This document shows, in pieces, positions 21,854-36,506 of a DNA stretch of 36,766 nucleotides (the first letter of the stretch is position 1; each line of letters begins with the position of its first letter). Both the position numbers and the translations under genes were made by a program. The stretch is from assembly GCA_015234065.1 (NCBI GenBank), contig JADFWS010000004.1, positions 1 to 36,766 on the forward strand. Direction: 5' to 3'. A model generated the notes under the pieces. It ran no database searches. It was not told where the DNA came from and worked only from the letters and a program-made list of their open reading frames with translations. Source of the DNA: Candidatus Omnitrophota bacterium. Its GTDB lineage: Bacteria > Omnitrophota > Gorgyraeia > Zapsychrales > Fredricksoniimonadaceae.

Positions 21854-22720
21854 CTAATAAACGCATTCCCAGCTTACACAATTCAAAACACCGCCTTCCT
21901 TGGCAAGGACGGTTGATTCGATCGGCACAACCTTCTCCCCGGCAAACGCGCGCCTTAAGATCTTGATCGCACGCTGATTCCACTCAGGATAGCCGACATA
22001 CGTGGGAACGAGCACTAAATCACCCGCGTTCAAGAAATTCACATAGTTCCCGACAGCAGAATGCTTGTTTTTAGAATCCTTTTCAATAAAATACGGCAGA
22101 TCAATCCACCTCAACCCATGTTGACGTAAAACATCTCTTAGCTTGCGACCAAAGATCTTTTGGCCTGGCGCGATTTCATTGATCATCACAGTATTTTTAT
22201 TCACGAACCGCACACATCCATCTGCATGACCGTACGGGTCGCCAGGCTCCTCAGGGATCATGATCAGTTCATCCACATTCAATAGATCCGTTAGAAGTGC
22301 GTACACCGTTGCTTTTCGATATCTGGGGTTTTCTTTGAATACCCGTTCCGTCATGATCGCCTTATAACCATATTGAACAACATTTCCCCCATCAACAACG
22401 AGATCAAAGTGCTTAGGGGTGATCCCGATCGCTTGGCATGTCTTAACAGGGTTAGTTATGGTGGCTCGCCAGCGAGGTGACTTCAAATACGAAGGACGAT
22501 ATTTGAACTGCATGAAATAACCAGGCTCATAATGATTCAAGACAGAAATACTTTCTGGCGGCCTCCAGACAGGCATATAATCCCGGCACCAAATGTCCTG
22601 CGTATATGGTAGAAGCTTAAAGTCGATACGCGCGCCTGAAAGCGCACGAGAGATCTGATCAAAACACTCTGGAAAGCGTTTAGGAAGAAGGGCTGAGAAA
22701 TACAACATCTGTCCAGACAT
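21854..22720 (-). CDS. agmatine deiminase / peptidylarginine deiminase (PAD_porph-like) family; start MSGQMLYF
   Basis: DIWCRDYMPVW, VDGGNVVQYG, EEPGDPYGHADGCVRF, GNYVNFLNAGDLVLVPTY, putative catalytic Cys in EGGVLNCVSWEC. Confidence 0.85.
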   Translation of the reverse strand: MSGQMLYFSALLPKRFPECFDQISRALSGARIDFKLLPYTQDIWCRDYMPVWRPPESISVLNHYEPGYFMQFKYRPSYLKSPRWRATITNPVKTCQAIGITPKHFDLVVDGGNVVQYGYKAIMTERVFKENPRYRKATVYALLTDLLNVDELIMIPEEPGDPYGHADGCVRFVNKNTVMINEIAPGQKIFGRKLRDVLRQHGLRWIDLPYFIEKDSKNKHSAVGNYVNFLNAGDLVLVPTYVGYPEWNQRAIKILRRAFAGEKVVPIESTVLAKEGGVLNCVSWECVY

Positions 22721-22721
22721 T

Positions 22722-23447
22722 CTACGCCTCCTGTGTCGGTTGATATTCACTCTCACTCAAACCGAATGTCCATGCCACCGCCTCACGCACTGTCTGCATC
22801 TCCGGGGGCACGCGCAGAACATAAAAAGCACCTGTTGATGGGCAACAAACCTTGACCAAGGCAATCGGCTCTTCATCAGGCAACGATGAACCAATACGGA
22901 CCAATGCTTGAGGACCATCTTTGTGGATCACCTCATACGGTGCCTGAGCTAAAAACCGTTCATAGCCAAGTTCCTGCAAGAAAATACGCCGTATTTCCGC
23001 ATTCTGTGCGGCCATCACATGACCAGCATTGATCGGCGTTCTTTCAATAGAATCATTTAAATCTTTTGAAGCCAGTTGATCTGCAAGAAATAGTGACTGA
23101 CATTTAAACTTCCCCTGATCATCCCATTCAATAAATAACCCGTGCTTGTGATCAGCCTCATAGGCACTCTTTTTGATCAACATCCCGTTATGTGCCCACT
23201 CAAGAACAACGCCATCCAACTGCCCACGATTATACGGCTCTTGCCGTTTGTTTTTCCCATCAGGATAATAGACCATCCCGACTCCATGCAAGCGCCGGGC
23301 ATGCATCGGATAATCGAACATAAGAGCCCCATTAGGATAAAATCCTTTGGACTCAGCCCTGATCTTTAAAGCCGCATGCGACCGGACATAACACAAACTC
23401 CCACTCGCCCAACGGAATTCCTTTGGCTCTTCAAATCTCTTCTTCAT
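22722..23447 (-). CDS. YwqK/MORN-like repeats fused to DUF6745-like C-terminal domain
   Basis: Repeats GVGMVYYPDGKNKRQEPYNRGQLDGVVLEWAHNGMLIKKSAYEADHKHGLFIEWDDQG; C-term NAEIRRIFLQELGYERFL...LPDEEPIALVKV...FYVLRVPPEMQTVREAVAWTFGL. Confidence 0.7.
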   Translation of the reverse strand: MKKRFEEPKEFRWASGSLCYVRSHAALKIRAESKGFYPNGALMFDYPMHARRLHGVGMVYYPDGKNKRQEPYNRGQLDGVVLEWAHNGMLIKKSAYEADHKHGLFIEWDDQGKFKCQSLFLADQLASKDLNDSIERTPINAGHVMAAQNAEIRRIFLQELGYERFLAQAPYEVIHKDGPQALVRIGSSLPDEEPIALVKVCCPSTGAFYVLRVPPEMQTVREAVAWTFGLSESEYQPTQEA

Positions 23448-24367
23448 GATGCATCCTCGCTACGAAATGAACATCGCAAACTCTTATCATCGAAATCCAA
23501 GTCTGAATATGTATCGCCAGGAAATTTTCGTTTAATATGCCACAAACGCCGTCTGGGATATACTTTCGGCAATTCCAATACGGGATCAATATCCATTTCC
23601 ATGTCGAGAACGGAAATATTATCTGAAACCCGTGCCAGATCTCCCTCAAGTGCTGCAATCTTGTGCAACTTTGGTTCAACATAAGGTCTTGGTAATTCTT
23701 TCTGCAACGCATCTGACATCTTCAAACTGACGATGATGGCGATATCCAACGAAACAGCCAATGCTTTCAACCTTGCGCAAAACCTTTCCCGCCCGGCCCT
23801 GATCACTTCAATATCAGCCGCATATAAGAGACCGATCTCATCAAGACCATCGATAACCACAAGCTGTATTCTTTTCTCACGTACACACGCCTTGATAGAA
23901 TCCTCTAGCCGTATAATATCGAAACATCCGTCAGCGATATATATAGGAGCTTCAGACAACACTCCTGCGGCTGCTGTTAAACGCGGAAGGAGCTCATCTG
24001 CTTTTGCCGTTCTCACGTGCGGTTCTGCAAGACTAACACCGCTTAACTGACACAACATCCGTCTAAGCAATAACTTTGCCGGCATATCAAAAGAATAATA
24101 GGCGCATGGCATATCTCTGCGGGCAGTCACATGCAATGCTATCGATGACAAAAATGCAGTAACCCCAACCCAGGGACATCCTAAAACAAGAGCCAACTGA
24201 CCTCGCCGTACATCAAAAGCACCACGATCATAAGCTCCTGTCGGCATCCCCTGTGTTGAAGGGACCGACTGCTGTAAATCTTCGATCACATCTGAGACAA
24301 TATCTCTGGCACGAACAACATCCTTCCTGTGACGCGCCTTAATTCTTTGAAACAAGTCTAAGAACAT
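23444..24367 (-). CDS. DnaB-like RecA-fold protein with degenerate Walker A
   Basis: RRGQLALVLGCPWVGVTAFLSSIALHVTARRDMPCAYYSFDMPAKLLLRRMLCQLSGV aligns by eye to the DnaB C-terminal domain; Walker B-like IQLVVIDGLDEI. Confidence 0.7.
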   Translation of the reverse strand: MFLDLFQRIKARHRKDVVRARDIVSDVIEDLQQSVPSTQGMPTGAYDRGAFDVRRGQLALVLGCPWVGVTAFLSSIALHVTARRDMPCAYYSFDMPAKLLLRRMLCQLSGVSLAEPHVRTAKADELLPRLTAAAGVLSEAPIYIADGCFDIIRLEDSIKACVREKRIQLVVIDGLDEIGLLYAADIEVIRAGRERFCARLKALAVSLDIAIIVSLKMSDALQKELPRPYVEPKLHKIAALEGDLARVSDNISVLDMEMDIDPVLELPKVYPRRRLWHIKRKFPGDTYSDLDFDDKSLRCSFRSEDAS

Positions 24368-24576
24368 TTTCTGACTCCCCGTCTTTGTTTATCTGCCTTT
24401 ACTGGAGGATCATCGTCCTCATCAGGCCAGATCGGCGCGACCCTAAAGACTAACTTTCCCTTAATGTACACATCCCTAACAACAAGTCGGTCTTCCATGT
24501 CATAGGCCTCATACACCCCATGCAAGCTCGCTATAAACTTCTTACTGTATTTCTTCTTCCATTCGTTATAAGTCAT
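24358..24576 (-). CDS. 72-aa hypothetical protein
   Basis: Sits in a coupled operon (10-bp overlap with the downstream start, 8-nt gap from the upstream stop); YNEWKKKYSKKFIASLHGVYEAYDMEDRLVVRDVYIKGKLVFRV. Confidence 0.65.
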   Translation of the reverse strand: MTYNEWKKKYSKKFIASLHGVYEAYDMEDRLVVRDVYIKGKLVFRVAPIWPDEDDDPPVKADKQRRGVRKCS

Positions 24577-24584
24577 GACCTCTC

Positions 24585-25964
24585 CTAAACTCGACCGGCA
24601 AAACCCATTGGCTGTTTATTTTCTTTTAGGAACATCCCATCCTGCTCCATACGCGCACCAAAGAGAAGATCTTCCATCGTAATTGATGTGCGTTTCTCCT
24701 GAGCCAGGCGCCGTAAAGCATTCATGACCGCGTTCTTGATATATCCTCCGCTCATAACAAATTTCTGCCCCAACTCATTAAAATCAACATCTGCGGCGAT
24801 CGTGACTTTTGAAGGAATATGTGCCCGCCAAATACCTGGACGCAGCGCCTGATCTGGCGGAGTAAATTTAATTTTAAGGGAAACTCTCCGTTCCAAGGCC
24901 GGATCGAGGGCCGTATCAAAGTTCGTCGTCAGGCACAATACGCCTTCGAAACGTTCAATCTCCTGAAGCATCACATTCACAAAAGCAATATCCCTTTCAT
25001 GCTCCATACGCTGCCGACTGTAAAGCAGGGAATCGGCCTCGTCAAAACAGATGACCGCATTCCTGGCCTTAGCTGTCGTAAATAGATTCGCGATATTCTT
25101 TTCAGTCTCGCCAAAAAGTTTATCCGTGATCTGCGGCATGGCAACCTGAAGGATCTTCTTCCCAAGATGGCGGGCAATGGCATCCGCGAGCATACTTTTA
25201 CCGGTTCCCGGAGGCCCATAGAAAAGAAATGCCGCCCCACGCCCTTTTTTAATCTTTTCTTCTATGCCGAGATCGCCCATTCCACCCTTCCAGGAATCAA
25301 TATGAAAGAGAACATCATCCTTTATCTTCTGCGGCAGGACAACATCATCCATCCCATACTCCGGTTCACGAAGATTTCCCGTTTCCTGCAGAGGATCATC
25401 TTTCCCTGCAGTAGGGATCTCTATATTCTTGCCCGACATAAACTCAACCAGAGCTGAGCGCATCGCCGGATTTAAGACAATGTCCGCGTCGTGGTGGCTT
25501 CCGGATGTCCTTGGCTTTAAGATCAAAATATTACGTTTAAAAAGAGGGCTTTCCGCACAAAGAGCCTTATGAAATCGTAATTTTGAATCCCAGGAAGGCT
25601 CAGTATCTACCATGGCTACAAGCTCGTTCACCTGCCAGCCGCAAACAGGATGGAAGAGGTTGGTATAAAGCAAAAACAAAACAGCCTTTTTCTCAAATAG
25701 TCCAAGCTCATTTTCATGGGAAAAGTCATCAAAAAAGAACTTGGCGCCATTTTTGCGCGCATTTTCCACATCCCGCCAGAAGATGACCTCTTCTTCTCTT
25801 AAAAACGCATCAAACCGCTTCAGCTCCCCAAGATCCTTCCAGTACTCGCCTTCGCATGTACTTTTACGTACACGCTCCCAGAGCTTTTCCAAAATAGCCC
25901 GTTTTTGAAGAAAGAATTCGCACAATGTAAAATATTCACTGAAATAATCCTGATCGTTCTTCAT
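24585..25964 (-). CDS. AAA+ ATPase (classical AAA, FtsH/spastin-like module) with unknown N-terminal domain
   Basis: Walker A FYGPPGTGKSMLADAIA; Walker B AVICFDEADSLL; sensor LCLTTNFD; SRH LDPALERRVSLKI. Confidence 0.93.
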   Translation of the reverse strand: MKNDQDYFSEYFTLCEFFLQKRAILEKLWERVRKSTCEGEYWKDLGELKRFDAFLREEEVIFWRDVENARKNGAKFFFDDFSHENELGLFEKKAVLFLLYTNLFHPVCGWQVNELVAMVDTEPSWDSKLRFHKALCAESPLFKRNILILKPRTSGSHHDADIVLNPAMRSALVEFMSGKNIEIPTAGKDDPLQETGNLREPEYGMDDVVLPQKIKDDVLFHIDSWKGGMGDLGIEEKIKKGRGAAFLFYGPPGTGKSMLADAIARHLGKKILQVAMPQITDKLFGETEKNIANLFTTAKARNAVICFDEADSLLYSRQRMEHERDIAFVNVMLQEIERFEGVLCLTTNFDTALDPALERRVSLKIKFTPPDQALRPGIWRAHIPSKVTIAADVDFNELGQKFVMSGGYIKNAVMNALRRLAQEKRTSITMEDLLFGARMEQDGMFLKENKQPMGFAGRV

Positions 25965-26071
25965 GACAACCTTTCCCTTCCTGAATTAACATTCTCCTGA
26001 ATGCAAACAAAAGTTCTTTCTATTTGTCCGTAAAAGTCTTTCATGTCTTCCGGTAAATTGTCAGCTTTCAT
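25961..26071 (-). CDS. putative 36-aa small ORF, translationally coupled to the AAA+ gene
   Basis: MKADNLPEDMKDFYGQIERTFVCIQENVNSGRERLS; AGGG 5 nt before ATG; stop overlaps AAA+ start (ATGA). Below the ORF-track length cutoff. Confidence 0.4.
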   Translation of the reverse strand: MKADNLPEDMKDFYGQIERTFVCIQENVNSGRERLS

Positions 26072-26149
26072 CTTTTCCCTAACCATAAAAAGGGCATCAT
26101 CGGAAACAATGCCAATGGCAAAAAACCCTTTCAATATAAGTACACTAAA

Positions 26150-26183
26150 AGTATAAAACAGGAACGCGACAGCCTTGTGTCGC
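26150..26183 (-). promoter_or_regulatory. putative promoter with operator O3 for the AAA+ operon
   Basis: GCGACA-gccttg-TGTCGC palindrome at 26166-26183; minus-strand -10 TATACT at 26150-26155, so the palindrome covers the expected -35 position. Confidence 0.6.
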
Positions 26184-26184
26184 C

Positions 26185-26229
26185 TATAAAAAGAAAACCG
26201 GCCGCGCGGGCTTTAACCCATGCGGCCGC
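26185..26229 (-). terminator. Rho-independent terminator ending the WYL/GIY-YIG operon
   Basis: Minus strand GGCCGCATGGG-TTAAAG-CCCGCGCGGCC followed by GGTTTTCTTTTTATA. Confidence 0.75.
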
Positions 26230-26285
26230 AAAGAAATTGAGAAGCCATAAATTATTTTAGTGCCACAAACGTTCAAAAAAGACAT

Positions 26286-26819
26286 TTATTTCTGGCATAA
26301 GATTGGCCAACCATAATGTGCCCTCCAAGCACATTCCATAGTTCCCGCGAATTCTTTATAAGAATGTTGGGTGCGAAAAACTTCTGGCAAGTCATGCCAA
26401 CAAACATAAGAAAATCCCCACTTGTCCAGATTCCTTGTCGAAGTGCCGCCTATCGCCAAGGCCCCTGTTCCTTGCCCCCCTTTAAATTCTTGGGATATAC
26501 GCCGACGCAAGTCTACAGCCTTGCCGTTATACACAACTCGATATTGATTGTCCCTTCCCCCCGTAAAATTACAGATATGTTCAAGCTCGCTGTGCCATTG
26601 AACGCATTTATCAATAGGCGCAGCCCCTGACAGGTCACTTAACTTAGATTGACCAATCGCATTATTTGTATACGATGTATAAATCCAATAAAGACCCGCC
26701 ATCTTGACCGGAAGATCTGCTGGAAACTTAAAATCATCATCCCATGCGTGCAGAACAACATCCAGTCTACAAAATCGGCCGGACTGAATCGAATTTATCT
26801 TCTCAATCACTTCTTTCAT
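26286..26819 (-). CDS. divergent GIY-YIG-like nuclease domain protein; likely start MKEVIEKINSIQ
   Basis: GLYWIYTSYTNN (GIY-like) and YRVVYNGKAVDLRRRISQEF (YIG...R-like). Confidence 0.55.
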   Translation of the reverse strand: MKEVIEKINSIQSGRFCRLDVVLHAWDDDFKFPADLPVKMAGLYWIYTSYTNNAIGQSKLSDLSGAAPIDKCVQWHSELEHICNFTGGRDNQYRVVYNGKAVDLRRRISQEFKGGQGTGALAIGGTSTRNLDKWGFSYVCWHDLPEVFRTQHSYKEFAGTMECAWRAHYGWPILCQK

Positions 26820-26855
26820 ATGGATGCCCTCTAAATAGTCAAAGAAACACATTCT

Positions 26856-27830
26856 TTAACATGACTTTAGATATACCCCCACCGTCTCTCGTATCCTCGC
26901 CTTGAACTCCGCCGGTTCAAGAACAGACAAGCAAGGAATCCAATGCATAATGAGATGCGAAATCTCATCCGGATGCGCAGGAAAAGTCTCAAGGACCAAT
27001 GAACCATCCTTCTTCTCCTCAACAATCTTTTGAAGGGGGAAATATTTACGATGCTTGAAATACTGCGCGGCCTCAGGGGCAACGCGAATAAGCACACGGT
27101 TCGGGCGATCCGTATCGAACCAAATATTAACACTCTGCTCAAGGATCTTGTCAAAGCCCGCCATTGGCACAAAAGAGTCTTCAGTCTGAGTAGCCTTACG
27201 GATACGATCCAGACGGAACTTAATGATTTTCTTGTTCGCATCCTGAGTTAACAAATACCAGAAGCCATCAAAAAACGCGATCTTAAGAGGCTCCACAAGG
27301 TATTCCTTCTCCTCACCATTAGAACGAAGATAAAGGATCTTGAGCTTCTCATAACCATCCACAGCCTTCTGTATCTCTGTAAGGCAGTCAGACTGCGGAA
27401 GAAATGTTCCGGATGGTATCTTGGCATAGAAAGGCGTGTCGGTATGAGGAACCATGACGCGTTTGAAAAGCTCACGAAAAGTCTTCTCAAAGGCGTCACC
27501 TAAAGACGATGAAATACCGTGCATGAAGGAAAGTAATGACGCCTGCTCTTCTGTCAATTCCACCTTGCCAAGATTAAACCCTGCCATGAAAGAATGCTTA
27601 CCCTTTTCAGGGGAATAAATCGGATAAAAACCAGCCAGTAGCACAATGTCACGCTGGATCGTGCGCATATCAACACCGATATCTGCGGCGAGGCCTGATG
27701 ATGTTACAAATTTATTTGTATTCAGTTTGGAAAGAATCAAAATCAAACGTTCAATGGTCTTCATGTAATCCTTGGCAGGCTTACCCGAACCTTTGCGCTT
27801 AAATGTCACGATTTTCTTTTTTGCTGGCAT
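26856..27830 (-). CDS. WYL-domain transcriptional regulator with N-terminal HTH
   Basis: VTSSGLAADIGVDMRTIQRDIVLL (HTH); YEKLKILYLRSNGEEKEYLVEPLKIAFFDGFWYLLTQDANKKIIKFRLDRI (WYL). Confidence 0.9.
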   Translation of the reverse strand: MPAKKKIVTFKRKGSGKPAKDYMKTIERLILILSKLNTNKFVTSSGLAADIGVDMRTIQRDIVLLAGFYPIYSPEKGKHSFMAGFNLGKVELTEEQASLLSFMHGISSSLGDAFEKTFRELFKRVMVPHTDTPFYAKIPSGTFLPQSDCLTEIQKAVDGYEKLKILYLRSNGEEKEYLVEPLKIAFFDGFWYLLTQDANKKIIKFRLDRIRKATQTEDSFVPMAGFDKILEQSVNIWFDTDRPNRVLIRVAPEAAQYFKHRKYFPLQKIVEEKKDGSLVLETFPAHPDEISHLIMHWIPCLSVLEPAEFKARIRETVGVYLKSC

Positions 27831-27843
27831 GGCACATCCTTTC

Positions 27844-29418
27844 TTAAGATCTAACGATCTCTTTTAATTTCTTCAATATATCCACCATCGCCTGCGTATC
27901 TAGCCCACAATACGCCTCGAGATCTGCATAAACTTTGGCACGATCGGTCGGATTTACATTTTCATCGTAAGTAACACGCGCATACTCTGACGACGCCAAT
28001 CCACCTTCTCCAATGGCCATACCCGCATAAGTTTTACCAATAAATGCCGGTAAAACCTTCTTGAGCGACGCCGACCCATGCTGATCAGGATGGTGATAAT
28101 GATACTTACTAAAAGGGATCATCAAATCTTCTGTCCTGGGCAAGACATCTTGGGCCCACTGGGAATATTCAGGGAAAGCCTCCCCCAACTCTTTGATCCT
28201 GCCTTCCTCAAAACTTTTATTCCAGGCCAGGATCGTGCCATCAGAGCCAAGACAAGCTTTAAGCGCCTTTACAAAAGCAGGGCGAGGATCGTCAGATGAC
28301 TTATGCAGAAATTCAAAATGCTTCGGCGTTGCTCCAGGGGTTTCCTCAAGATGCACGGAAAACTGGAACGGCACCTGTTGATACGGTCGCGTTCCATCAA
28401 ACCGCGGGATAGCCTCAAAGATAGTCTCAAAATCCATATGCCGAAGAGGATAGCTGATCGCCTGAAGGAAACCCGAAATCTCTGGCTGATCCACATGCGC
28501 CTGATTACTAATAGTGCACAATCGCTGGATCATCTGATTATCCGTTAACTTAAAACCATCAGGTATATCTACCAAACGAAGAATGCCCTGGTCCACGAGG
28601 TCAAACCCCTTCTTCTTCCCGCGCGTCAGCTCAAGAACATTAAAGGCTGGCAAGAACGCCCAGCATACAGGCTTCATCGGACAATCATATCGAACCCCTG
28701 ATTTCTTGGTACAACCCTCACTAATAGAAATATTGGGACATGCCGGCATGTCTATAGTCTGAAAGAATCCTTTCAAAAGCACAGCAAGCTGAACAAAGAA
28801 AGGCACGATCTCCTCAGTAACATCTTCCAAAGTAAAGAACGCCTCAACATCAATCTCACCATGGCGCACATACTCATTATTAATGTGCATCAAAAAACAA
28901 CGACCGACCTTGATCCCCGCCTGTTCATAGCAATAACGTTGAAACGCTACGTCCTGTAGATATATCTCTTTCACACTCGTTCCGCATTTAACTTCAACAA
29001 CATCCCATGCGCCGGAATTTGTCTTTGACGGGACAAGGATATCAGCACGAGCATAAAGCCGTCCAGTCTTAATCCCAGCCTCATAAATAGGCCGCGGATC
29101 AACAGCACTCAATAAAGACTTTGTTTCTTGGATATTCTCCATGAAATTCTCTTCCTGGACATGAACGCCACCAGGGAACCTTTTCATGGCCAAAGAGCCG
29201 ACCCTATGCCCTGTATCAAAAACCCTCTGAAGGCTATCAGGTGTCGGCGGGATCTGGTCAGGAGCATTACAACGTATCCATAAAAGTTTAGGACACTGCA
29301 GAGCATTTAAGAACTTCGACTTTGTCAGCGTCTTTGGATCTTTGACCGCTTTCAGATCCCGAACAGAATCATAAACAAAATCATTCTGCAGTTTGCTAAA
29401 TTCAAATTCATCATCCAT
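27844..29418 (-). CDS. DUF2779-family protein: Cas4/PD-(D/E)XK-like N-terminal region plus DEDD exonuclease-like C-terminal region; likely start MDDEFEFSKL
   Basis: SKFLNALQCPKLLW; RADILV...WDVVEVKCG; CX8CX9CX5C cluster CPNISISEGCTKKSGVRYDCPMKPVC; RHMDFETIFEAIPRF; DLEAYCGLDTQAMV. Confidence 0.8.
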   Translation of the reverse strand: MDDEFEFSKLQNDFVYDSVRDLKAVKDPKTLTKSKFLNALQCPKLLWIRCNAPDQIPPTPDSLQRVFDTGHRVGSLAMKRFPGGVHVQEENFMENIQETKSLLSAVDPRPIYEAGIKTGRLYARADILVPSKTNSGAWDVVEVKCGTSVKEIYLQDVAFQRYCYEQAGIKVGRCFLMHINNEYVRHGEIDVEAFFTLEDVTEEIVPFFVQLAVLLKGFFQTIDMPACPNISISEGCTKKSGVRYDCPMKPVCWAFLPAFNVLELTRGKKKGFDLVDQGILRLVDIPDGFKLTDNQMIQRLCTISNQAHVDQPEISGFLQAISYPLRHMDFETIFEAIPRFDGTRPYQQVPFQFSVHLEETPGATPKHFEFLHKSSDDPRPAFVKALKACLGSDGTILAWNKSFEEGRIKELGEAFPEYSQWAQDVLPRTEDLMIPFSKYHYHHPDQHGSASLKKVLPAFIGKTYAGMAIGEGGLASSEYARVTYDENVNPTDRAKVYADLEAYCGLDTQAMVDILKKLKEIVRS

Positions 29419-29442
29419 TGCAGGCCGCCCTTCCACATTAAA

Positions 29443-29458
29443 CGACACATTTGTGTCG
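29443..29458. promoter_or_regulatory. putative operator O1
   Basis: Perfect palindrome CGACACA-TT-TGTGTCG just downstream of the putative -10. Confidence 0.65.
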
Positions 29459-29461
29459 CCA

Positions 29462-29497
29462 TTTATAAATATACCACAAAATCTGACAAAGCGACAA
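29462..29497 (-). promoter_or_regulatory. putative sigma70-type promoter of the DUF2779-WYL operon
   Basis: Minus strand TTGTCG-N18-TATATT (or TTGTCA-N16-TATAAA). Confidence 0.5.
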
Positions 29498-29507
29498 CTT
29501 GTTGTCG
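29492..29507. promoter_or_regulatory. putative operator O2
   Basis: Perfect palindrome CGACAAC-TT-GTTGTCG (GCGACAACTTGTTGTCGC), overlapping the putative -35. Confidence 0.65.
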
Positions 29508-29533: not shown

Positions 29534-31642
29534 TTACCTTACTATAAACTGCACCGTCGAGCTCCGCCCAAAGTTATCCGCACATGTAATTTGGTACATC
29601 CCCGGCGTCATTGGCAGGAATAGCTTCTCCTGCGGCAACGCGGTCTTGTATAGCGCACCGTTGACGAACCAATAAAGTTTCTCAGCCTCGTGTGGCACCT
29701 TAGCCTGCAGATCGATCTCATGCGTGCTGCCAGCAACACCGGAAACAAAGTATTCTGCCCCGCCCGCTGGTGAAACGATCTCTGGCCGTTTGGCAGGATC
29801 AACGAAGGCGCCGCGGGTCATCGTGTTCTTGTCCAACCCGATTGATTTGACTGACAAGCCGTCGTTAGCTTCAGCTAAGACTGTTCCGGGCTTTACGTAC
29901 CAGACAACCGCGTTATTTGCATACATCCAATCAAAGAGCCTCACCGCCAGCGGTGTCGCTGCCTCTATGCCAACCAACGCCTTGGACGACTTGCCATTGA
30001 AATTCCCTAACCAGACGCCCACCGTGAACTCGGGATTATAAGCAAATGTCCAGGCATCACGCTGACCATAAGACGTGCCTGTCTTAAACGCGATCTTTGG
30101 ATTGATCTTCTCATTCCGATACAACCCGATTGACTGAAGCCGACCGGTATCCGAAAGAATGTCCGCGATAATATACGCAGCACCTTCATTAAGAAGCCTG
30201 CGTCCTAATGTCCCATCGTCTGCTTCAACCAAGGTGAACGGCTTGTAAACTCCCAGGCGGGCCATCATGGCATACGCATTGGTTAGTTCAATAAGACGAA
30301 CATCCGGCGACCCCAGCGTCAAAGACAGGCCATACCGATCCGGGTCCGGTGATAATGTCTTTAGTCCTGCATCCCGCAAAAGCTCATGCAGAACGCGATA
30401 GCCAACATCGTCCAGAACCTCGACCGCTGGGATGTTCAAAGAATCAACCAATGCGTCTCGAAGCGTAACCTGCCCACGGAAGGTTTTGTCATAGTTGTGC
30501 GGCAAATACTCGGCATAGCGAGACGGCACATCATCCAGAATGGTTCGGGTTGAATATCGGCCGGTTTGAAGTGCCAAGGCATAAGTGAACGGCTTGAGCG
30601 CCGATCCCGGAGAGCGACTGCTCAAAGCGCCGTTAACCTGACCCTGATCCGCCGCTGACATGAAGTCCGCAGAACCAACCAGCGCGCGCACCTTCCCGGT
30701 CCTGTTTTCTATGATGACAATCGCGCCGTTCGATACGCCCTGTCCTTTCAAATGATCGACCGTCTCTTTTAAGGCACTTTGGGCAAACTGTTGCAGGCGA
30801 GAATCGAGGCTGGTACGCACCGCCTTCTCACTCGTGAAGCGGCTCTTTATGTACAGTGCGAAATGCGGCGCTTCCTTGGGAAACTCGTAATAGCCAACGA
30901 TAACTGGCTGTTGTATCGCCTGCGCGTAAGCCTTCTGATCGATGTCCCCTGTCCGTAACATACTCGCCAGCACCCTGTCCCGGCGAACCTTGGCTCTTTG
31001 GGGATAACGATCCGGCCGTAGTCTGGATGGCGACTGTGGCAGCCCCGCAAGCAAAGCTGATTCAGCCAGCGTCAGGTCATCCGGTTCCTTGTCGAAATAA
31101 CGCAAGGATGCCGCCCGCACTCCATGAATGTTTCCGCCGTACGGAGCGAGCTCAACATACATCTTGAGGATCTTGGCCTTTGAATACAACTGCTCAAGGC
31201 GAATGGCATGGACAATCTCAATGACCTTGTTGACCATACTCCGCTTGCGCCCTTCGATAAGACGGATGGTCTGCATACTTATCGTCGATGCACCAGAAAT
31301 GATCCGGCCATTGCTCAAGTTGAGAAACGATGAGCGAATGATCGCCGACACATCAACGCCAGGATGCCGGTAGAAATTATGATCTTCTATCGAAAGCATA
31401 GCCTTGATAAAACGATCATCAAGTTTCGTCAGTTCCATCGGCAACTGCCACCGACCCTGGTCATTTAGGAAGGTGTAAAGAAGCCTCCCATCCTTATCAA
31501 GAACCTCTGTCGAATAGTGGATGTTCTTGATCGCATCTGTCGGTAATGGAACAATAGTCAAAACCAGACCATACAGGCCCACCGATAACGCGATCAGCGC
31601 CACACATCCGAACAGGATTCGCTTAAGGATCTTTATCCGCAT
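29534..31642 (-). CDS. pbpC: penicillin-binding protein 1C; start MRIKILKRILFG
   Basis: GT51 SIEDHNFYRHPGVDVSAIIRS...GASTISMQTIRL; transpeptidase SRSPGSALKPFTYALAL and KTGTSYGQRDAW; C-terminal beta domain. Confidence 0.93.
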   Translation of the reverse strand: MRIKILKRILFGCVALIALSVGLYGLVLTIVPLPTDAIKNIHYSTEVLDKDGRLLYTFLNDQGRWQLPMELTKLDDRFIKAMLSIEDHNFYRHPGVDVSAIIRSSFLNLSNGRIISGASTISMQTIRLIEGRKRSMVNKVIEIVHAIRLEQLYSKAKILKMYVELAPYGGNIHGVRAASLRYFDKEPDDLTLAESALLAGLPQSPSRLRPDRYPQRAKVRRDRVLASMLRTGDIDQKAYAQAIQQPVIVGYYEFPKEAPHFALYIKSRFTSEKAVRTSLDSRLQQFAQSALKETVDHLKGQGVSNGAIVIIENRTGKVRALVGSADFMSAADQGQVNGALSSRSPGSALKPFTYALALQTGRYSTRTILDDVPSRYAEYLPHNYDKTFRGQVTLRDALVDSLNIPAVEVLDDVGYRVLHELLRDAGLKTLSPDPDRYGLSLTLGSPDVRLIELTNAYAMMARLGVYKPFTLVEADDGTLGRRLLNEGAAYIIADILSDTGRLQSIGLYRNEKINPKIAFKTGTSYGQRDAWTFAYNPEFTVGVWLGNFNGKSSKALVGIEAATPLAVRLFDWMYANNAVVWYVKPGTVLAEANDGLSVKSIGLDKNTMTRGAFVDPAKRPEIVSPAGGAEYFVSGVAGSTHEIDLQAKVPHEAEKLYWFVNGALYKTALPQEKLFLPMTPGMYQITCADNFGRSSTVQFIVR

Positions 31643-31643
31643 A

Positions 31644-34600
31644 TTATTCCACAACCTGAACTCTGCCCTGTCCATTCACACTGACAATCGACGGATCATA
31701 CATTTCTTCCGCCTTAACCGCAGGCAGAACAAAGCCGCCCTTGGTGACTGCCCGGACAATATACCGATAATGCTCAACCCCGCCCTTAACATCTAAGAAC
31801 AGCACCAACCGATCATCACGAATGTCCATGTGAACCGGCTCGATCATGTCGCCAGAAATCCAGTCCATCTTCTCAGTCGTCTTAAGCCGCGGATTTTCGA
31901 TCTCGAAACCAGCCGGCAATAGATCTTCGACAACGATATTATCCAAACCTGCCGCTCCTTCGATCTTAAAATCCACAACCACAGTATCGCCGTGCTTTAT
32001 TGCATTGAGATCTACGGGCTTACCGTCACGATTCAAAAAAGTCCGGCGAATCTTAATTCCACTGTCCTTCTCCTGGGCCGTCCCAGCTGTTGGCACACCC
32101 TCGGATGTCCAATAAACATACGCCGTTCCTTTACCGGCAACTGAAACCTCAACCGTCTTACCGGCAAGGTCGAGATCAGACACTTCCAAACCGTTATGAC
32201 TGGTGAACTCACGCACAGCGTCACCAATCTTGACGGTTCCGTTGAACTCGATATTCTCCTGGGTAAAATAACGGGCATATTTACCCAGAGCGATCAACGC
32301 CTGAGCATTTTCCTGAGTTGATGCCCACTGGCCGTTAGTCATGGCCTTCTCAAGACGAGAAACAAGAACAGGAACCATTGCGTTCTGCGGCTCAAGATCC
32401 ATATAGATCGACAAGACCACGGCATTTTGCCTGACATACGACATCAGATTTCCGCCGAGTTCGCGCTTAACCTGGTCGTCCGGGAAACTCTGCCCTAAGG
32501 TTTCCTCCACAGCCTTTCTATCACCAAGAGCGCTCAAAGCCGCCGCAACATAACACCTTGATTCAGCGGGCAGCTTATCTTTCATCTCCTGCAGACGACG
32601 GATCCAGGACGCATTGATCCTCCCCGCCTTGGCCAGAACATACGCCGCGTACGCCTTGAGCTCTGGGGTATATGCTTCGTCCTTCTTTGCTAACACACCT
32701 TCAAGGTACCCCAATGCCAATATCTTGGCGAATTGCGGAACGGCATATCCCGCCTTATCAGCTTCAACTAGGAAGTCCGTGGCATAGACGCTGCCGTAAA
32801 CATATTCATTGCGCTCCCCCTGCCACATTGAGAACCCGCCCCACAATGTCTGCATGGAAAGAACCCGTTCTATGCCGGCATTAACGAGTTTGCTTATGGT
32901 ATCGGGATTGTATTTCCGGCTATCCATGGTCATCGCCAGATCCCTCAAATACAACAGCGGAAATACCGTCGATGTGGTTTGCTCAATACAACCGTAAGGA
33001 TACTTAAGAAGATACCCCAAACCACCGGAGATCTTTAAGGACGGCATACCGGAAATGATCAGCTTCGTGCGGGCCGTTCCATCAAGCCAGCCAGCCGGGA
33101 TCGTCAACGGTTTCGCAGATCCCGCAGGCACTTCAAGAACACCGTTCAATGTGGACCAACCGACCGGTGGTCTGACCGCGATCTCTGTGGTCCTGGACAC
33201 GTTATCATTCCGCAGTGTTGCGCTGATCTTAATTTCACCTTTTTGCGGCGTGGCCGGGGCCTTCAACTTAAAGGTAACAACGCCTTCCTTATTCGGGGCG
33301 AGCGTCACTACCTGCTTCTTCTCACCCGTCACTGCAAAGCTGTTCGGCACATCCAGTGAAACAACTACATCCCCCGCCTCTTTTGTCATATTCGATACGG
33401 AAATAGACAGAAGGAACTCATCGTTCATGGATAAGAAGCGCGGCAGGAACGGATTCAAGACCACCGGCTCAACAACCTTCACTTCTCCATCCTGAGCGAC
33501 AAAGTCACTTTCACCAGCACCGACAATGATCCACTTCAACTTACCGTTGAATTCCGGTATGGTGAACTCAACCTGGGCTTTTCCGTCAGCATCAGTCACG
33601 ATCTGACTCTTCCAAAGTGCGATGCTCTTCACCCTCTTGGCATTGACCGGATTGTAATGTTTAGCATCATACGACTTGTCGCCGGACGGTGAAGAATCCG
33701 CGGCAGCCTTACTTTCTTCCAACTCCGGCATTAGAAGAGAATAAATATCACTCGTCTGGAAGCCATTCGTGCGCTTGCCATAGAAGAAGTTAAACGCATC
33801 CGGAGTCTTATAACCTGTCAGACGCAAGATCGCGTCATCGACCAGGGCAACAGAGAACTCAATAGGCTTCCCTGCCGGACCTTTAATATCCAACTTAACC
33901 GTGTCATTTGGACGCGCCTCAGCGGGAACACTAACATCAACCACGGTCTTATGAGCATCATTGTTCACCATGATCGGGACAATCCCATACCCACGATGTG
34001 ACGTCCACTGTCCTCCAACCGTAACCGGCCGGATCACCGTGAGTGAACAATAAGCATTAGGCGAAAACTCCTCAGTGACCGAAATAGCTTCCTGCTGGGC
34101 AGCCGCTCCCACATCCAGCGTCTTACTCAGAAATACCTTATCTGTTGCGCAAGTCAGCAAGGCTTTGCCGGCAAGCGGGGACTTGATGGATAACTGCGCT
34201 GTTTCTCCAACAGCATATGAAACTTTATCAAAGGCCAGGTCAATCCTGTCCGGCCGTTCCTTGGCCCAACTAACGACGCCTGGCCCTTCAACAAAAAGCT
34301 TAACCGAAGACGCATGAGCATTATCCCCTGATCCCTTGAATCTCAGGATATAATCGCCTGCGGATTGCGGCGTGAAAGCAAATGTTCCTGCCCCGTCTTG
34401 CGGCGTTAATGTTTTATGATCAAAGCAATCCTCACGGCTTTCTGTGATCCATTGCCACTCGCCCTTATCGCCCTTCTTAATCATGCTGCTCCAAATGACC
34501 TTGCAGACATCCGCGCTAACTTCTGCCGCGGGTGCCTTTGTGCCATCCGGCAAAAGGGCAACATAATCAAACTTCACTTCTTGACCCAGAATGCCGTTCC

Positions 34601-36506
34601 CCTCGATCTGAGGCTTCACACCGACGTAATAAGGATAAACATCAATGTTCCTGTCCTCGTAAACTGAAGATCCGCGCCCACCGATCTCTTTCGCAGTCAC
34701 GCGAACAGACATCTCCAGGGCTGACGGCGGCAACTTAACATCACCAATCTTGATCTCAAACGCAGCATTGCCATTCTCGTCCGACTTCTTAATGGCCAGA
34801 TACTCACGCTTAAAGGTAAACGCACGCGTGTCATCAGAAAATGAAAAGCCCTTGTAGTCTTTCGGCTCAAACTTAACCGCTTTGAGGTTGTACGACACAT
34901 CGATATCCCGTCCTGATGCCGGCGCGCCAAAGTTCTGCTGAACATTAACCTCGACCGGAACCGCCTCTTCCTTCTTAAAGCGCTTGTCCGCAACCTTCGC
35001 CGCAACCTTCAGACTGTCCGGCACAAACTCTTCAACATTTAACTTAGCCTCACCTATCGGCTTGTCGCTACCTGGGATCTTCAAGGCGATCTTATATTCG
35101 CCGGTCAAAGCGTAGTCAGGCAGCTCAACTTCAACATCCGCTGTGCCAAACTTATTAAGAACCGCGTTATAGTCCTTGAACTTCTTTCCATCGGGACGGG
35201 AAATCTCAAAAATAACCGGAAAACTATCTGGGATCTTTACGCCAGGCGCACGAACAATCGTTCGCACATTAGCCTTCTCTCCGGGACGATATACGCCACG
35301 GTCGCTATAAATAAACCCTTCATAACCTGCGCTCAGATACGGCCGGCCCTGAATATCAAAGTCCGTCTCGGAGATCGTATTGCTGGCAACCTCCAGATAT
35401 GACATATCCGCATCTTTGGAAACCGTAACAACAAATGGCTCCCTGTCCTTGCCAAAATCAACATCCTTAAATCTCATCAAACCATTCTCATCTGTCTGTC
35501 CCTCGACGATTAGCTGATTGGTTTTACTTAAAACCTTAACAGTTGCACCGGCCACAGGTGTTGTGTCCTTTAGAGAACAAGCCCAGACCAGGAGCTCCCG
35601 AGGCCCCTTCTTTAAGAGAATACCAATGTCCGTAACAAGGACGATCTTAGAATCCCCGCTGCCCTCTCCTGTTGGGTCAGACGCCGTGATATGAAATAAC
35701 CCTTGCTGGTTCTCGGGCAAAAGGCTTTTCAGATCGATCTGCGCTTCCTTAATAACATTAAGTCCGGCGACAATAGGAATGTCCCTGGTTACAAGATCAA
35801 CCCCAATGTCCTGCGGTCCTCGGTAATCTCCGGTGTTGTTCAAGAAATATACGACGTTATTATCATAAAGACGATGCACGGCAAGATGCACCTTGCTCAG
35901 GTTTACAGCCTCAAATGGAATGATCCTGTTCCCCTTCAACCCCAAATACATCCCCGGAACCTTAAATCGCACAGTCGGCTCATAATCAGGAATAACAACA
36001 TCCGCAGTATCGCCCTCTTTGAGTACAGCACCGTCTTCAGACTTTAAGCCAGCCAAGATCTCAACGTGGTAAGTTTGTCCGGGCTTAAAGTCGCCGTGGA
36101 TCCTCATGCCTTCATAATCATCATCGACATAGAACTTTACCTCAGGCTTTATATCTACATATCCCTTAACATCGGCTTTACCAAGCGATTCGTTTAACTT
36201 CACAGCGATCGAGACATCTGTTCCGGACACTTCCGGCTTAATCTCGTTAACAGAGAGCTTGTTAGTCATAGACTTGACCGCATCCTGAACGTCCTTCGCC
36301 TTCTTTTGAAACAGATGCGTTAACGCCTCAAACCGGGCTCCGATAACATCAAAGATAGCGGGTCGTTGGAAGGATCCATTGCCCTCCATCACGCCCACAA
36401 TCTTTACCAGCCCGACGATATTTATCGTCGCGAACAGGACTGTGATCCAGAACCATCTTTGCTTGAACATGTCTTTCATTGTCCTGCTCCCCTCTGAATT
36501 AAACAC
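31644..36506 (-). CDS. bacterial alpha-2-macroglobulin (YfhM-like)
   Basis: 1620 aa; SDRGVYRPGEKANVRTIVR; thioester motif YPYGCIEQTTS (CIEQ codons 32979-32990); MG-domain organisation; next to pbpC. Confidence 0.93.
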   Translation of the reverse strand: MFNSEGSRTMKDMFKQRWFWITVLFATINIVGLVKIVGVMEGNGSFQRPAIFDVIGARFEALTHLFQKKAKDVQDAVKSMTNKLSVNEIKPEVSGTDVSIAVKLNESLGKADVKGYVDIKPEVKFYVDDDYEGMRIHGDFKPGQTYHVEILAGLKSEDGAVLKEGDTADVVIPDYEPTVRFKVPGMYLGLKGNRIIPFEAVNLSKVHLAVHRLYDNNVVYFLNNTGDYRGPQDIGVDLVTRDIPIVAGLNVIKEAQIDLKSLLPENQQGLFHITASDPTGEGSGDSKIVLVTDIGILLKKGPRELLVWACSLKDTTPVAGATVKVLSKTNQLIVEGQTDENGLMRFKDVDFGKDREPFVVTVSKDADMSYLEVASNTISETDFDIQGRPYLSAGYEGFIYSDRGVYRPGEKANVRTIVRAPGVKIPDSFPVIFEISRPDGKKFKDYNAVLNKFGTADVEVELPDYALTGEYKIALKIPGSDKPIGEAKLNVEEFVPDSLKVAAKVADKRFKKEEAVPVEVNVQQNFGAPASGRDIDVSYNLKAVKFEPKDYKGFSFSDDTRAFTFKREYLAIKKSDENGNAAFEIKIGDVKLPPSALEMSVRVTAKEIGGRGSSVYEDRNIDVYPYYVGVKPQIEGNGILGQEVKFDYVALLPDGTKAPAAEVSADVCKVIWSSMIKKGDKGEWQWITESREDCFDHKTLTPQDGAGTFAFTPQSAGDYILRFKGSGDNAHASSVKLFVEGPGVVSWAKERPDRIDLAFDKVSYAVGETAQLSIKSPLAGKALLTCATDKVFLSKTLDVGAAAQQEAISVTEEFSPNAYCSLTVIRPVTVGGQWTSHRGYGIVPIMVNNDAHKTVVDVSVPAEARPNDTVKLDIKGPAGKPIEFSVALVDDAILRLTGYKTPDAFNFFYGKRTNGFQTSDIYSLLMPELEESKAAADSSPSGDKSYDAKHYNPVNAKRVKSIALWKSQIVTDADGKAQVEFTIPEFNGKLKWIIVGAGESDFVAQDGEVKVVEPVVLNPFLPRFLSMNDEFLLSISVSNMTKEAGDVVVSLDVPNSFAVTGEKKQVVTLAPNKEGVVTFKLKAPATPQKGEIKISATLRNDNVSRTTEIAVRPPVGWSTLNGVLEVPAGSAKPLTIPAGWLDGTARTKLIISGMPSLKISGGLGYLLKYPYGCIEQTTSTVFPLLYLRDLAMTMDSRKYNPDTISKLVNAGIERVLSMQTLWGGFSMWQGERNEYVYGSVYATDFLVEADKAGYAVPQFAKILALGYLEGVLAKKDEAYTPELKAYAAYVLAKAGRINASWIRRLQEMKDKLPAESRCYVAAALSALGDRKAVEETLGQSFPDDQVKRELGGNLMSYVRQNAVVLSIYMDLEPQNAMVPVLVSRLEKAMTNGQWASTQENAQALIALGKYARYFTQENIEFNGTVKIGDAVREFTSHNGLEVSDLDLAGKTVEVSVAGKGTAYVYWTSEGVPTAGTAQEKDSGIKIRRTFLNRDGKPVDLNAIKHGDTVVVDFKIEGAAGLDNIVVEDLLPAGFEIENPRLKTTEKMDWISGDMIEPVHMDIRDDRLVLFLDVKGGVEHYRYIVRAVTKGGFVLPAVKAEEMYDPSIVSVNGQGRVQVVE

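What the first reader, a model, noticed from the sequence alone, without database searches (positions are those of the whole stretch)
21854..29507. Candidate undescribed WYL-controlled two-operon island (nuclease module plus AAA+/pseudo-DnaB/DUF6745/deiminase module)
Seen: nine ORFs on one strand flanked by ordinary genes. Operon 1 is DUF2779 nuclease-like, WYL regulator, GIY-YIG-like, ending at a hairpin terminator. Operon 2 is a small ORF, AAA+ ATPase, 72-aa ORF, DnaB-like protein, YwqK+DUF6745-like protein, deiminase-like protein, with ATGA or near-zero spacing at almost every junction. The same palindrome sits at both promoters. Known: WYL regulators frequently control phage-defence and DNA-damage loci. 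Inference: this is one co-regulated system, plausibly defence or DNA-damage related, that matches no named system I can recall. Function is untested.
Basis: partly seen in the sequence, partly recalled or inferred. Interest (0 to 1): 0.85.

Follow-up and report, generated by a model that had tools for sequence, protein, structure and literature searches.

The report
WYL-switched bacterial defence-gene island
In an uncultured Omnitrophota bacterium, two small gene clusters share a DNA switch (CGACA-six bases-TGTCG) that relatives also place in front of CRISPR, restriction and other anti-virus genes, which suggests that one WYL-type regulator turns on a whole set of defences at once.

Summary
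Nine minus-strand ORFs form two operons separated by a terminator, with the same palindrome at both promoters. The 'one co-regulated, defence-like set' reading also holds, but as a regulon of recombining modules rather than one fixed machine. Modules: DUF2779/WYL/GIY-YIG; AAA+ and a 72-aa protein; DnaB-like; a 96-aa histidine-rich protein with YwqK-DUF6745; deiminase; TPR; others. They are shuffled among WYL-positive genomes (18 of 286 in the phylum), near serine recombinases and known defence genes. The palindrome CGACA-N6-TGTCG occurs 39 times in 246 kb of WYL-linked loci and never in 118 kb of WYL-less DUF2779 loci. Only one half-site spacing is enriched. In 33 of 61 oriented sites a -10 hexamer starts exactly 19 nt from the operator centre, so the site replaces the -35 box. 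The same promoter type heads dispersed type I-C CRISPR-Cas, Hma, HKD-Snf2 and type I methyltransferase operons. The WYL profile and half-site match DriD, an ssDNA-activated activator. Most likely this is a DriD-like, damage- or phage-triggered defence regulon. Binding, trigger and phage resistance are untested; what operon 2 does biochemically is inferred. The 96-aa/DUF6745 pair is an uncharacterised unit also found on phages, plasmids and other phyla.

The parts
27844..29418 (-). DUF2779 protein (524 aa): Cas4-like PD-(D/E)XK region (EVK) with CPKLLW...C...C...CW cysteines, then DEDD-type exonuclease-like DUF2779 domain (DFE ... YCxLDT)
   Evidence: Pfam DUF2779 4.8e-41; PADLOC Cas4 weak 0.0045 here, 5e-10 in homologue L213; motifs read from sequence; no solved relative
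26856..27830 (-). WYL regulator (HTH-WYL-WCX, 324 aa), proposed DriD-like master regulator
   Evidence: Pfam WYL 1.5e-13, WCX 5e-11; subfamily profile hits DriD 9pfq 3.3e-11 and PafBC 6sj9 3.7e-12, BrxR-type 7qfz only 0.0073; invariant R56, R60, D61 in HTH
26286..26852 (-). GIY-YIG-like protein (188 aa), motif level only
   Evidence: no Pfam hit; weak UvrC-type matches E 0.01-0.09; true GIY-YIG in same slot of L060, 6e-9
29492..29507 (.). operator CGACAACTTGTTGTCG, operon 1, overlapping the -35 of TTGTCG-18-TATATT
29443..29458 (.). second operon 1 operator CGACACATTTGTGTCG, just downstream of the -10
26198..26228 (-). intrinsic terminator of operon 1 (hairpin then U-rich tail)
26167..26182 (.). 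operon 2 operator CGACAGCCTTGTGTCG; -10 TATACT at 26155-26150 starts exactly 19 nt from its centre
25961..26134 (-). 57-aa ORF, no family match, possibly not a gene
24585..25964 (-). AAA+ ATPase (459 aa), Cdc48/Vps4-like classic AAA with N-terminal domain; Walker A GPPGTGKS, Walker B CFDEAD, arginine-finger RR intact
   Evidence: Pfam AAA 8.2e-27; homologue L049 carries N-terminal WHD PF22977 4.8e-9; PDB Cdc48-type 2e-47
24358..24576 (-). conserved 72-aa protein following the AAA+
   Evidence: homologues L034 3e-21 and L212 5e-18, same position; no family
23444..24367 (-). DnaB-C/RecA-like ATPase with Walker-A Lys lost (GCPWVGVT)
   Evidence: Pfam DnaB_C 1.9e-18; intact GK[TS] in L035, L049, L050, L258
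22722..23447 (-). YwqK/MORN_2 repeats + DUF6745
   Evidence: Pfam; AF2 pLDDT 94.4 with MORN-like sheet, DUF6745 part without PDB relative
21854..22720 (-). agmatine/peptidyl-arginine-deiminase-fold enzyme; WCRD, GHAD and C-terminal NC aligned with the 1xkn deiminase motifs
   Evidence: PAD_porph 1.6e-25; 1xkn 1.4e-12 with alignment; close homologues only in G131, G155 and WWE3 L072
36528..36764 (-). C-terminal part of a recurrent operator-linked small family ('MTWDEF'), cut by the contig end
   Evidence: all-vs-all clustering

Best explanation
The island is two operons of a WYL-controlled defence regulon. A homodimeric DriD-type WYL regulator, encoded in operon 1, recognises [G/A]CGACA-N6-TGTCG[C/T] (CGAC-N8-GTCG). 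At most target promoters this site sits where the -35 box should be, 19 nt from the -10, so the regulator most likely recruits RNA polymerase at promoters with a poor -35, as DriD does. The inferred trigger is single-stranded DNA from phage replication or damage, bound by the WYL domain. Activation would switch on in trans (a) exonuclease/nuclease genes (DUF2779, GIY-YIG), (b) an AAA+/DnaB-like/96aa-DUF6745 module plus variable effectors (deiminase, TPR, ARH-PPP, HAD, MBL), and (c) dispersed classical systems (type I-C CRISPR-Cas, type I RM, Hma, HKD-Snf2). In operon 2, the AAA+ ATPase and DnaB-like protein are taken as the sensing/remodelling motor and the arginine-type deiminase as the effector. 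Shown computationally: gene families, operator, promoter geometry, association with WYL and defence genes. Inferred: WYL binds the operator, activation rather than repression, ssDNA trigger, the roles of operon 2 proteins, phage resistance.
For: Operator: 39 sites in 246 kb of WYL-linked loci (nearly all chosen by gene), 34 intergenic, against 0 in 118.5 kb of DUF2779 loci without WYL. Only the 8-nt spacing between CGAC and GTCG is enriched, 47 against at most 4 for any other spacing. All 18 WYL-positive genomes have at least 2 sites, against 56 of 268 others, Fisher 5e-12 (hand tally of the table). Sites in WYL-negative genomes lie inside ORFs 18 of 21 times. The -10 starts at +19 in 33 of 61 oriented sites against 0.54 expected; 23 of 50 in gene-chosen WYL loci against 2 of 21 in WYL-negative controls, p=0.003. 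Operators lie 30-65 bp upstream of WYL itself in L049, L259, L261, L266. Dispersed operators head Cas3c in the window's own genome, Cas3c-Cas5c-Cas8c, HmaA, C3a139 twice and HsdM. DriD's site ATACGAC-N7-GTCGTAT overlaps the -35 at fixed distance from the -10, and ssDNA activates it (PMC12340889); the WYL profile matches DriD 3e-11. Modules co-occur with WYL: DUF6745 in 7 of 9 genomes, p=4e-8, and lie beside SspB/SspD and other defence genes.
Against: No binding or expression data exist. Operon 1 of the window has no -10 at +19 from either operator; its two sites bracket a TTGTCG-18-TATATT promoter, which suits repression better. The WWE3 genome carries operators and modules but no detectable WYL of this subfamily, so another protein could bind there. 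Twenty of the dispersed loci were picked by me partly on resemblance to the consensus, and sites from related genomes are not independent. The deiminase may be metabolic, and a heat-shock operon near one site (L252) shows that not every match is defence.
Confidence: 0.72

Rival explanations
1. Same regulon, but the WYL protein is a BrxR/CapW-type repressor. Sites over the -35 block RNA polymerase until a ligand made during infection releases it.
For: BrxR and CapW bind inverted repeats at defence promoters and repress them (PMC9122601; PMC9122588). Operon 1 here has two operators bracketing a plausible sigma-70 promoter.
Against: Rigid +19 spacing to the -10 with no consensus -35 at most sites is what an activator replacing the -35 requires. 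The profile is closer to DriD/PafBC (about 1e-11) than to BrxR (0.007).
Confidence: 0.22
2. Unrelated genes that accumulated in one insertion hotspot beside PBP1C/alpha-2-macroglobulin, with no functional link between the two operons.
For: The hotspot is real: islands abut the same pair in the window, L035, L050 and L051. Module order and content vary widely.
Against: Shared operator geometry, co-occurrence away from the hotspot (L049, L060, L211/L212) and in WWE3 (L072), significant association with WYL.
Confidence: 0.06
3. A damage-repair or stress regulon rather than anti-phage defence: exonuclease, AddB-like nuclease, DnaB-like and HspR/ClpB genes respond to DNA damage as in DriD or PafBC regulons.
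For: DriD and PafBC regulons are damage responses. The operator precedes an AddB-type PD-(D/E)XK gene (L250) and lies near HspR-Hsp20-ClpB (L252).
Against: The clearest members are phage-specific (CRISPR-Cas I-C, Hma, RM), and the HspR site has no -10 at +19.
Confidence: 0.2

Closest known systems
DriD regulon (Caulobacter WYL activator)
   Same: HTH-WYL-WCX regulator; CGAC...GTCG pseudo-palindrome over the -35 at fixed distance from the -10; several promoters in trans (PMC12340889)
   Different: Spacer 8 instead of 7 and no ATA/TAT outer arms; targets are phage-defence operons rather than didA, bapE, recJ, dnaG
BrxR / CapW WYL regulators of BREX and CBASS islands
   Same: WYL protein encoded in a defence island, inverted-repeat operators at defence promoters
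   Different: Here closer in sequence to DriD/PafBC; inferred activator; acts on many dispersed systems rather than one local island
Gac/Rsm-coordinated innate defence in Pseudomonas (PMC11888443)
   Same: One regulatory pathway coordinating many defence elements genome-wide
   Different: Gac/Rsm pathway there; DNA-binding WYL protein and palindromic operator here
IetAS
   Same: AAA+ ATPase weakly matches IetA (1e-30)
   Different: No subtilase IetS partner; different operon companions
STM4011-4015 clusters with 96aa-DUF6745
   Same: Same 96aa + DUF6745 gene pair
   Different: Radical-SAM cluster, no AAA+, DnaB-like protein or WYL

Membership tests
DriD-type WYL activator regulon | wHTH + WYL + WCX architecture | tested here: met
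DriD-type WYL activator regulon | CGAC/GTCG pseudo-palindrome overlapping -35 at fixed distance from -10 | tested here: met
   met at operon 2, not at operon 1 of the window
DriD-type WYL activator regulon | ssDNA-stimulated DNA binding and activation | not testable with these tools
   needs protein
BrxR/CapW repressor family | closest sequence relationship to BrxR/CapW | tested here: not met
   7qfz 0.0073 against DriD and PafBC about 1e-11
IetAS defence system | adjacent subtilase IetS | tested here: not met
   no subtilase among island ORFs
PAD/agmatine deiminase (guanidino-modifying) superfamily | conserved catalytic Asp, His and Cys motifs | tested here: met
   alignment to 1xkn
PAD/agmatine deiminase (guanidino-modifying) superfamily | AguA equivalog score | tested here: not met
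   30 bits against a 382-bit cut-off; not agmatine deiminase itself
DnaB replicative helicase | Walker-A lysine and full-length DnaB | tested here: not met
   Lys absent, 307 aa, no N-terminal domain
GIY-YIG nuclease (26286-26852) | Pfam GIY-YIG match | tested here: not met
   no match at E up to 1
Known PADLOC defence system (whole operon 2) | match to named system components | tested here: not met

The most novel reading that the evidence does not exclude
A single DriD-like WYL activator with a rigid promoter code commands an SOS-like immune regulon that coordinately induces CRISPR-Cas, restriction, Hma and a previously undescribed AAA+/DnaB-like/96aa-DUF6745/deiminase system, carried by shuffling islands in Omnitrophota and reaching other phyla such as Desulfobacterota and WWE3.
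Probability: 0.5. Interest if true: 0.88.

Novelty: new variant of a known kind. Interest (0 to 1): 0.8.

Why it matters
How bacteria switch on many separate defence systems together is poorly known; WYL regulators have mostly been tied to single local systems. A sequence-readable operator with fixed promoter geometry makes a defence regulon directly testable, predicts new defence genes by their promoter alone (including several families without any annotation), and gives a first handle on 96aa-DUF6745, a widespread phage- and bacterium-borne gene pair of unknown function.

Tried and rejected
Single named defence system: rejected (PADLOC and NCBIfam). Fixed two-operon machine: rejected by module shuffling. 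Chance palindrome: rejected by spacing, location and WYL-negative controls. DnaB-like protein as replicative helicase: rejected (lost Lys, truncated). Fold search for the 96-aa model (pLDDT 91.5) and the DUF6745 domain found no PDB relative apart from MORN sheets for the YwqK part. DUF6745 is in no held paper. DUF2779: the paper search listed only WYL papers, none with the word, but because of ranking limits it does not exclude one. IMG/VR scan: DUF6745 is common on viral contigs, often with the 96-aa gene, but none of those loci carried the AAA+/DnaB/WYL set.

Full report
Observation. The nine ORFs, the terminator hairpin and the repeated palindrome are all present. Two starts need correcting: DUF2779 at ~29418 and the deiminase at 22720. 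The GIY-YIG label is motif-level only. The 57-aa ORF is doubtful.

What the parts are. Pfam gives DUF2779, HTH-WYL-WCX, AAA, DnaB_C, MORN_2-DUF6745 and PAD_porph. PADLOC names no system. The DnaB-like protein has lost the Walker-A lysine in the window and in two same-family relatives, but keeps it in L035, L049 and L050. The deiminase aligns with the agmatine-deiminase-like structure 1xkn across the WCRD, GHxD and C-terminal Cys motifs, but is far below the AguA equivalog cut-off.

Neighbourhoods. DUF6745 occurs in 9, DUF2779 in 22, this WYL subfamily in 18 and this deiminase subfamily in 3 of 286 phylum genomes. The window genome G000 is itself counted in all four tallies. DUF6745 genomes carry WYL in 7 of 9 cases (p=4e-8). 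The full gene set lies together in G131:C34 (L033/L060): AAA+, two YwqK-DUF6745, 96aa, DnaB-like, DUF2779, GIY-YIG, WYL, an HNH-like protein, then TPR and deiminase. Other islands keep subsets: L034, L035, L049, L050+L218, L051, L052, L065, L085, L211+L212. A WWE3 contig (L072) has deiminase, HAD, DUF2779, 96aa and YwqK-DUF6745. Serine recombinases occur in four loci. Neighbours include SspB/SspD, PtuA, AbiEii, type II methyltransferase + Vsr, HEC-06, and a HAD protein that is the PADLOC candidate PDC-S34.

A conserved 96-aa protein. Relatives have a 96-aa protein before YwqK-DUF6745 that is missing from the window and from its genome (85.7% complete). Across 75 homologues His37, His65, Glu67, His68, Gln83, Glu85 and Asp96 are invariant, which suggests a metal site. 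AlphaFold gives an all-beta model (pLDDT 91.5) with no PDB match. The 96aa-DUF6745 pair also occurs with STM4011-4015 radical-SAM clusters, in Microcystis phage LMM01 and on many IMG/VR contigs.

The operator. The palindrome CGACA-N6-TGTCG recurs in these islands across phyla. In WYL-linked loci, nearly all chosen by their genes and not by the motif, there are 39 sites in 246 kb, 34 intergenic; DUF2779 loci lacking WYL have none in 118 kb. Scanning CGAC-Nk-GTCG for k=3-13 gives 47 sites at k=8 and at most 4 at any other spacing. WYL-positive genomes average 5.1 sites and the others about 0.9 (hand tally of the table). In WYL-negative genomes sites fall inside ORFs 18 of 21 times.

Promoter geometry. 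Orienting 61 sites toward the nearest gene, a -10 hexamer (at least 5 of 6) starts exactly 19 nt from the operator centre in 33 (0.54 expected). In gene-chosen WYL loci, either orientation, it is 23 of 50, against 2 of 21 in controls (p=0.003). The operator therefore occupies the -35 position. Operon 2 of the window fits (TATACT at 26155-26150). Operon 1 does not: two operators bracket TTGTCG-18-TATATT, so operon 1 may be differently regulated or autorepressed.

Dispersed members. In the window's own genome an operator lies about 50 bp upstream of a Cas3c gene. In G131 one lies 64 bp upstream of cas3c-cas5c-cas8c; others precede HmaA (G005), HKD-Snf2 C3a139 (G131, G018), HsdM (G009) and an AddB-like nuclease (G155). 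These 20 loci were chosen partly by consensus quality, so they illustrate rather than measure enrichment.

Mechanism. DriD binds ATACGAC-N7-GTCGTAT over the -35 and is activated by ssDNA (PMC12340889). The WYL subfamily profile matches DriD (9pfq, 3e-11; identity confirmed) and PafBC better than BrxR. HTH residues R56, R60 and D61 are invariant in the 15-member alignment. A DriD-like activator of a defence regulon is the best reading; a BrxR/CapW-like repressor is the main rival. The roles of AAA+, DnaB-like, DUF6745 and deiminase remain inference: motor/sensor, nucleic-acid-binding scaffold and arginine-modifying effector.

Limits. All evidence is computational, mostly from MAGs. Site counts from related genomes are not independent. 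WWE3 shows the operator without a detectable WYL of this subfamily.

Noticed in passing
window 29534-36506; L035, L050, L051: The PBP1C + alpha-2-macroglobulin gene pair is flanked by WYL/DUF6745 islands in four genomes, on either side of the pair: an apparent insertion hotspot for defence islands.
   Followed up: partly
L140-L210, L058: 96aa-DUF6745 pair (PHROG 27831 and 31813, unknown function) is common on viral contigs and sits between DNA polymerase and uracil-DNA glycosylase/clamp-loader genes in Microcystis phage LMM01.
   Followed up: partly
L054, L056, L057, L128, L137: 96aa-DUF6745 next to STM4011-STM4015 radical-SAM clusters in Deinococcus, Methylobacterium and Streptomyces; function unknown.
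   Followed up: no
L052, L220, L226, L262: WYL/TPR or DUF2779 genes follow a terminase/ParB-like phage gene cassette shared between genomes; possible prophage or satellite carrier.
   Followed up: no
L077-L139: Melainabacteria/Obscuribacterales genomes carry many DUF6745 copies per genome.
   Followed up: no
L252:5029: Perfect operator upstream of an HspR-Hsp20-ClpB operon without the +19 -10; possibly chance or a heat-shock link.
   Followed up: no
L238:2113-2720 (G000:C144): Operator-preceded 'MTWDEF' gene followed by a 49-aa WYL C-terminal remnant: a decayed second regulon locus in the window's own genome.
   Followed up: partly
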